Source: Acidimicrobiia bacterium
GTDB taxonomy: Bacteria > Actinomycetota > Acidimicrobiia > Acidimicrobiales > Aldehydirespiratoraceae
Assembly (NCBI GenBank): GCA_022820805.1
Contig: JAJEEV010000033.1
Coordinates: 59,398 to 123,397, forward strand
Length of the DNA: 64,000 nt
Reading direction: 5' to 3'
Below, piece after piece: positions 18,546-19,094 of the stretch. The notes under the pieces were generated by a model that did not search any database, was not told the origin of the DNA, and saw only the letters and a list, made by a program, of their open reading frames with translations. The position numbers and the translations under genes are program-made. Within the stretch, counting starts at the first letter, position 1. The number at the start of each line of letters is the position of its first letter.

Positions 18546-19094
18546 ATGGCTCGGATTGAGATTGTTCCGGAGGACTCCTGGGAGGGGGACCTCGGCGAGA
18601 TGTACCCGAAGGTGGTCGATCCCACCTACGGGCGGGTCGACAACATCCTTGCGATCCACTCGCTGAACCCCCGCTCCATGGCGGCCCACCAGACCCTGTA
18701 CATGTCGGCCATGGCCGGCACGGCCACGCTGCGCAAGGTCGAGCGCGAGCTCATCGCCCTGGTCGTGAGCCTCGAGAACGACTGCCACTATTGAATCGTC
18801 CACCACCGGCGCGGTCTGCGCCGCCTCATTAAGGACGACGAGCTCGTCGCCGCGGTCGAACAGGACTGGACCACCGCGCCACTGTCGATCAAGCGGAGGG
18901 CGATGCTGGCCTACGCGGTCAAGCTGACCCGCACCCCCGGCGCCATGACCGACGCCGACGTCGAGGACCTGCGAACCGTCGGATTCTCCGACCGCGACAT
19001 CCTCGACATCACCGAGGTCGTCGGCTACTACGCCTACGCCAACCGCATCGCCGACGGGCTCGGCATCGAGACCGAGCCCTGGATCCCCGACTGA
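18546..19094 (+). CDS. AhpD/carboxymuconolactone-decarboxylase-like peroxidase-related enzyme, candidate selenoprotein (CHYU)
   Basis: ...KVERELIALVVSLENDCHY[UGA]IVHHRRGLRRLIKDDELVAAVEQDWTTAPLSIKRRAMLAYAVKLTRTPGAMTDADVEDLRTVGFSDRDILDITEVVGYYAYANRIADGLGIETEPW; frame intact across UGA (549 nt = 183 codons). Confidence 0.88.
18807..18823 (+). promoter_or_regulatory. Candidate bacterial SECIS hairpin CGGCGC-GGUCU-GCGCCG
   Basis: Perfect 6-bp stem, 5-nt GGUCU loop, loop begins 19 nt after UGA (18792-18794). Confidence 0.75.

What the first reader, a model, noticed from the sequence alone, without database searches (positions are those of the whole stretch)
18546..19094. Candidate selenoprotein: AhpD/CMD peroxidase-related enzyme with CxxU and a GGUCU-loop SECIS
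Seen: the ORF track splits one continuous frame at UGA (18792-18794). The UGA replaces the second Cys of the AhpD-type CxxC-x-x-H centre (ENDCHY-UGA-IVHH), and the family-typical C-terminal half continues to 19094. A perfect 6-bp hairpin CGGCGC-GGUCU-GCGCCG starts 12 nt after UGA and its loop starts 18 nt after it, close to the E. coli fdhF SECIS loop (AGGUCU) and spacing. Established: AhpD-like selenoproteins are known from environmental selenoproteome surveys. Inference: this organism inserts Sec here; automated annotation would call two truncated genes.
Basis: partly seen in the sequence, partly recalled or inferred. Interest (0 to 1): 0.93.

Follow-up and report, generated by a model that had tools for sequence, protein, structure and literature searches.

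The report
AhpD-like peroxidase selenoprotein, known family
This bacterial gene reads an internal UGA "stop" as selenocysteine to make a small peroxide-reducing enzyme; the evidence is very strong, but the protein family was already on published lists of predicted selenoproteins.

Summary
The frame 18546-19094 is a TIGR01926 peroxidase-related (AhpD/CMD) protein with one in-frame UGA at 18792-18794. The UGA replaces the second Cys of E-x11-CxxC-x3-H.

The genome encodes tRNA-Sec, SelA, SelB and a SelD that itself carries Sec. Its formate dehydrogenase has a SECIS of identical geometry (UGA, 12 nt, 6 bp, GGUCU). All 50 aligned orthologs (this gene and 49 relatives) have UGA at this column, and 49 of 50 genomes with such a gene have selA. 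Cys homologs carry Cys there. The hairpin's wobble-wobble pair is a standard pair in 50/50 through five pair types, so the RNA is under selection. One Cys ortholog nested inside the Sec clade keeps the peptide but has lost the hairpin at silent sites.

Novelty is low. A 2008 ocean survey reported AhpD-like CxxU selenoproteins, and a 2026 review lists "AhpD-like protein, TIGR01926, CxxU". Added here: the silent-site SECIS evidence, the Cys control, the breadth across phyla, and an unproven hint that the SECIS shifted register within the family. Peroxidase activity and actual Sec insertion are inferred, not shown.

The parts
18546..19094 (+). selenoprotein gene: 182-aa AhpD-like peroxidase-related enzyme (TIGR01926) with one Sec codon; TGA terminator at 19092-19094
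   Evidence: TIGR01926 137.1 bits over cut-off 81.8; Pfam CMD PF02627 44.1 bits over 23
18792..18794 (+). UGA codon read as selenocysteine (U83)
   Evidence: UGA in 50/50 aligned group-1 sequences; Cys in Cys homologs at the same column
18807..18823 (+). SECIS hairpin CGGCGC-GGUCU-GCGCCG, loop 18813-18817
   Evidence: 98.3% of cells paired, 10 cells with double changes vs 1.3 in shuffles; wobble-wobble pair standard in 50/50; same geometry in the genome's own FdhA
18747..18749 (+). Glu68 codon, matches AhpD Glu118 by spacing (E-x11-C)
   Evidence: sequence; AhpD proton relay residues from PMC3141380
18783..18785 (+). Cys80 codon, first residue of the CxxU centre (AhpD Cys130)
   Evidence: sequence; alignment to solved peroxidase-related proteins; PMC3141380
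18804..18806 (+). His87 codon, matches AhpD His137 (CxxC-x3-H)
   Evidence: sequence; PMC3141380

Best explanation
The gene encodes a bacterial selenoprotein of the AhpD-like / peroxidase-related family (TIGR01926). When a ribosome meets UGA 18792-18794, SelB carrying Sec-tRNA-Sec binds the mRNA hairpin whose GGUCU loop begins 18 nt downstream and delivers selenocysteine instead of termination. The 182-aa protein then carries a Cys80-His-Tyr-Sec83 redox pair, backed by Glu68 and His87, which match the proton relay of M. tuberculosis AhpD. Its likely work is reduction of H2O2 or organic peroxides, or of an AhpC-type partner, through a Se-S cycle. Shown here: the frame, the conserved UGA, the RNA selection, the Sec machinery, and homology to solved AhpD-like proteins. 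Inferred: actual Sec insertion, the catalytic activity and the substrate.
For: Frame and motif; family TIGR01926 E 5e-40; solved relatives 2pfx E 2e-30, 3c1l, 2oyo, 6k40; tRNA-Sec 68.3 bits over cut-off 47 and ARAGORN SeC(tca); selB 279 bits over cut-off and adjacent selA 377 bits; selD 358 bits with its own UGA at the UGCK site; FdhA of the same genome with U-H-A-P and UGA-12 nt-GUCGUC-GGUCU-GGCGAC; 49 relatives at 57-82% identity, all UGA at the column; 49 of 50 UGA-carrying genomes have selA against 152 of 245 others, Fisher p 2e-8; silent covariation of the hairpin; GGU at Gly90 in 48/50 against 20% of Gly codons elsewhere in these genes; purifying selection after the UGA, mean pN/pS 0.26 against 0.15 before it; Cys orthologs nested in the Sec clade, the one with DNA lacking the hairpin.
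Against: No expression, mass-spectrometry or 75Se data. Folding energy alone is not significant. One UGA-carrying genome (G280, 84% complete) shows no selA. One ortholog reads TTA (Leu) at the column with an intact hairpin (L232). AhpD-like family members can be weak peroxidases (PMC3141380), so the substrate remains open.
Confidence: 0.97

Rival explanations
1. Pseudogene or sequencing error: a Cys codon TGC/TGT mutated or was misread to TGA, and the 3' half is dead or the stop is false.
For: In a single genome this is the default reading of a frame split by one stop.
Against: UGA at the same column in 49 relatives of the class and in loci labelled Gemmatimonadota, Planctomycetota, Acidobacteriota, Chloroflexota, Bacteroidota and Bacillota. 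Purifying selection continues after the UGA.
Confidence: 0.005
2. UGA is a general sense codon in this lineage (for example Trp), so no SECIS is needed. Some metagenome gene calls do show Trp at this column (P0003, P0004, P0006-P0008).
For: Database translations with W at the U column.
Against: Homologs have Cys, not Trp. The gene itself ends in TGA. The genome has tRNA-Sec, SelA, SelB and SelD. The hairpin is under selection at silent sites. The W entries are most likely table-4 gene calls (inference).
Confidence: 0.003
3. Two separate proteins or a regulated truncation: the 82-aa product is the normal one, and the downstream 63-aa ORF from ATG 18903 is a separate protein.
For: Automated calls produce such halves, e.g. 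P0016, P0027, P0034.
Against: The halves join into one TIGR01926 domain over residues 5-177, matched by single-chain solved proteins. The hairpin lies between the UGA and ATG 18903. Inefficient decoding may still release some truncated product.
Confidence: 0.01
4. The hairpin is a by-product of the peptide HHRRGLRRL (Arg codons CGN on both sides) rather than a SECIS; Sec would be inserted by another signal.
For: Arg and Gly codons alone favour a GC palindrome, and four of six pairs hardly vary.
Against: The wobble-wobble pair is matched in 50/50 through GC, CG, GU, AU and UA; GGU is fixed at 48/50 against a 20% background. The Cys ortholog L112 keeps HHRRGLRRLL but breaks the hairpin. Sec homologs with other peptides (HHGAGLRRL, AHLHDLRSE) have different hairpins there. 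FdhA in the same genome uses the same geometry.
Confidence: 0.02

Closest known systems
AhpD-like selenoprotein (TIGR01926, CxxU), PMC13188914 Table 1; probably 'AhpD-like 1' (COG2128, CxxU, 299 sequences) of the 2008 ocean survey PMC2398784
   Same: Same family model, same CxxU position, UGA-encoded Sec with Cys homologs
   Different: Nothing essential differs. This is another member, in a genome whose relatives are annotated with split genes. That the COG2128 group equals TIGR01926 is my inference from the two lists.
AhpD of M. tuberculosis (Cys130/Cys133, Glu118, His137)
   Same: E-x11-C-x2-(C/U)-x3-H proton-relay spacing
   Different: Sec replaces Cys133; Tyr82 stands where AhpD has His132, as in PA0269; TIGR00777 ahpD scores 19.9 bits against a cut-off of 192, so it is not an orthodox AhpD
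Peroxidase-related proteins with solved structures (2pfx, 3c1l, 2oyo, 6k40)
   Same: Same family, E 2e-30 to 4e-24
   Different: The two aligned (2pfx, 3c1l) have Cys at the Sec position
FdhA selenoprotein SECIS (in this genome; E. coli fdhF is the classical case)
   Same: UGA-12 nt-6 bp-GGUCU in FdhA of this genome; the GGUCU loop of E. coli fdhF is recalled, not tested
   Different: Different protein; stem sequences are unrelated
NF041238 AhpD_rel_CFYUT (seleno)protein
   Same: Also AhpD-related with CxxU
   Different: Scores 39 bits against a cut-off of 175: a different subfamily

Membership tests
Bacterial selenoprotein | In-frame UGA aligned with a Cys of homologs | tested here: met
   50/50 group-1 sequences UGA; Cys in L088-L091, L112, P0009-P0012 and others
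Bacterial selenoprotein | Genome encodes tRNA-Sec, SelA, SelB, SelD | tested here: met
[quoted passage not shown]
   6 bp, 5-nt loop GGUCU, 18 nt, -10.7 kcal/mol for the core hairpin
Bacterial selenoprotein | RNA hairpin maintained by selection independent of the peptide | tested here: met
   silent compensatory changes; hairpin lost in Cys ortholog L112
Bacterial selenoprotein | Selenocysteine physically present in the protein | not testable with these tools
   needs mass spectrometry or 75Se
TIGR01926 peroxidase-related (AhpD-like) family | Score above the curated cut-off | tested here: met
   137.1 bits vs 81.8
TIGR01926 peroxidase-related (AhpD-like) family | E-x11-CxxC-x3-H active-site spacing | tested here: met
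   E68, C80, U83, H87, with Sec for the second Cys
TIGR01926 peroxidase-related (AhpD-like) family | Peroxide reduction | not testable with these tools
   inferred from the family; PA0269 has only weak H2O2 reduction
AhpD proper (TIGR00777) | Score above the curated cut-off | tested here: not met
   19.9 vs 191.95 bits
NF041238 AhpD-related CFYUT (seleno)protein | Score above the curated cut-off | tested here: not met
   39 vs 175 bits

The most novel reading that the evidence does not exclude
Within this one protein family the SECIS hairpin has changed register relative to a fixed UGA. Most relatives have a loop 16-19 nt after UGA, whereas one clade, which includes paralogs in the same class, has it 24-25 nt after. 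A metagenomic member (L168) can fold either hairpin, the two sharing an arm, which would be a stepwise route for moving a SECIS without losing Sec. Alongside, a Sec-to-Cys reversal (clade P0009-P0012) erased the SECIS at silent sites while the peptide stayed.
Probability: 0.4. Interest if true: 0.45.

Novelty: new member of a known kind. Interest (0 to 1): 0.3.

Why it matters
It corrects a gene that annotation splits in two in many related genomes. It adds an antioxidant-type enzyme to the selenoproteome of an understudied bacterial class (Acidimicrobiia, judged from names of close database relatives). It also gives a clean example in which silent-site covariation, backed by one natural Cys reversal, argues that a bacterial SECIS is selected as RNA. 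It does not open a new kind of system.

Tried and rejected
Folding energy against shuffles: z -0.70, not informative in GC-rich DNA. Rfam: no SECIS match. Outer stem 5-10/42-47 of the minimum-energy fold: only 60.5% of cells paired, so not part of the conserved element. Conserved gene neighbourhood: the window gene's neighbours have no counterparts beside relatives' genes (only about 0.3-1.5 kb of flank was held), apart from one weak Rieske match, so context gives no functional clue. A Trp code was rejected (see rivals). DNA of more Cys orthologs was sought and only one found. Structure prediction was not run because sequence homology to solved structures was already decisive.

Full report
WHAT IS THERE. 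The + strand frame 18546-19094 codes for MARIEIVPED...VSLENDCHY-U-IVHHRRGLRRLIKDD...WIPD, 182 residues, with one in-frame UGA at 18792-18794 and a terminal TGA. Ordinary ORF calling splits it into 82 and 63 residues. The joined protein matches NCBIfam TIGR01926 'peroxidase-related enzyme' over residues 5-177 (137.1 bits, cut-off 81.8) and Pfam CMD. By sequence it matches solved peroxidase-related proteins 2pfx (E 2e-30), 3c1l, 2oyo and 6k40; the two alignments shown (2pfx, 3c1l) have Cys at the UGA position. The residues E68, C80, U83 and H87 have exactly the spacing of Glu118, Cys130, Cys133 and His137 of M. tuberculosis AhpD, described with His132 and a water as a proton relay in PMC3141380.

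THE HAIRPIN. CGGCGC-GGUCU-GCGCCG lies at 18807-18823, with its loop 18 nt after the UGA. This is the only UGA + 9-29 nt + 6-bp stem + GGUCU loop in the window, where 0.15 would be expected. It satisfies the published bacterial SECIS rules (loop of 3-9 nt, G in the first two loop positions, 16-37 nt from UGA, -7.5 kcal/mol or lower; PMC13188914), with -10.7 kcal/mol for the core. Folding energy against shuffles is not significant (z -0.70), so I rested the case on comparison.

MACHINERY. The genome (3.4 Mb, 94.8% complete) has tRNA-Sec (68.3 bits over cut-off 47; ARAGORN SeC with anticodon tca). It has selB and selA side by side on contig 46, and selD on contig 44 about 5 kb before the window. 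SelD itself has UGA in FSHGAGUGCK. A formate dehydrogenase on contig 23 has UGA in RTUHAPSV, followed by 12 nt and GUCGUC-GGUCU-GGCGAC. That is the same spacing, stem length and loop as in the window gene, an internal control from a classical selenoprotein.

CONSERVATION. Among 295 genomes of the same class, 50 (this one included) hold a group-1 ortholog with exactly one UGA (57-82% identity). The 50 sequences aligned (the window gene and 49 relatives; one genome contributes two and one was not fetched) all have UGA at this column. A second group at roughly 33-43% identity also carries UGA. Forty-nine of the 50 genomes with a group-1 UGA gene have selA, against 152 of 245 others (Fisher p 2e-8; the exception is 84% complete). 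This test does not correct for relatedness of the genomes. The protein is under purifying selection on both sides (mean pN/pS 0.15 before the UGA, 0.26 after the SECIS). Scans of other collections gave Sec forms in MAGs labelled Gemmatimonadota, Planctomycetota, Acidobacteriota, Chloroflexota, Bacteroidota, Bacillota and KSB1. Other homologs have CxxC.

RNA SELECTION. On the 50 sequences 98.3% of stem cells pair, and 10 cells show changes on both sides against 1.3 in shuffles. The decisive pair joins two third-codon positions (Arg88 and Arg92). It is a standard pair in 50/50, as GC 35, CG 6, GU 5, AU 3 and UA 1. Every such change is silent except in one sequence (L045), where codon 88 is Gly. 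Gly90 is GGU in 48/50 against 102 of 502 Gly codons (20%) elsewhere in these genes, and Leu91 is CUG in 49/50 against 34%. The outer stem of the minimum-energy fold is not conserved (60.5%).

NATURAL CONTROL. Cys orthologs P0009-P0012 (57-59% identical to the window protein) form one clade (SH-aLRT 99) nested inside Sec sequences in a tree built without the UGA and SECIS columns. The one with DNA, L112, has TGC and still encodes HHRRGLRRLL, but two stem pairs (U.C, G.G) and the loop U are gone, all by silent changes. This is what loss of the SECIS after a Sec-to-Cys reversal predicts. It is a single DNA sequence, so it is suggestive rather than statistical.

MECHANISM. Shown: the frame, the machinery, the conserved UGA, the RNA selection and homology. 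Inferred: SelB binds the GGUCU hairpin and places Sec at UGA; Cys80 and Sec83 form a selenenylsulfide couple activated by His87/Glu68, reducing peroxides. No conserved neighbourhood was found, so the substrate and electron donor stay open.

KNOWN OR NEW. The ocean survey PMC2398784 reported 'AhpD-like 1' (COG2128, CxxU, 299 sequences) and 'AhpD-like 2'. The 2026 review PMC13188914 lists 'AhpD-like protein, TIGR01926, CxxU' among families predicted with high confidence. The gene is therefore a new member of a known kind. Public entries for close relatives are mostly ~100-aa C-terminal halves, those with a name being called peroxidase-related enzyme, plus some with Trp at the column, probably from table-4 gene calls.

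A LEAD. SECIS loop distance is 16-19 nt in most Sec members but 24-25 nt in another clade (for example L083 GACCUCC-GGUC-GGAGGUC). L168 can form both, sharing an arm. The deeper nodes of the tree are weakly supported (quick method), so the direction and number of shifts are not established.

Noticed in passing
L222:1741 (G000 contig 23, about 180.6 kb): Formate dehydrogenase alpha subunit with UGA in RTUHAPSV and a SECIS of the same geometry as the window gene (12 nt, 6 bp, GGUCU).
   Followed up: yes
L018 (G000:C44:53233-54147), about 5 kb before the window start: selD with Sec at its catalytic site; its stem-loop AGAUCGC-ACCCG-GCGAUCU is closer to the UGA and lacks a G in the first two loop positions, unlike the bSECIS rule.
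   Followed up: partly
L168 and relatives L072-L087, L173, L171, L175: SECIS loop at 24-25 nt in one AhpD-like clade versus 16-19 nt elsewhere; L168 can fold both hairpins with a shared arm.
   Followed up: partly
L232 (G337, contig of 4222 bp): Ortholog with TTA (Leu) instead of TGA but an intact SECIS hairpin; a recent mutation or an assembly error.
   Followed up: partly
P0003, P0004, P0006-P0008, P0014: Database proteins with Trp at the Sec column, probably metagenome gene calls made with genetic code 4.
   Followed up: no
G000:C44:48515-49039 (L021) and G000:C2:2530-3027 (L022): Two distant paralogs in the same genome that keep a Cys at the Sec column but lack the first Cys of CxxC.
   Followed up: no
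L072-L075, L077, L078 (family f29, genomes of about 1 Mb): Streamlined ~1-Mb genomes of the same class keep selA and a UGA-containing AhpD-like gene despite their small size.
   Followed up: no
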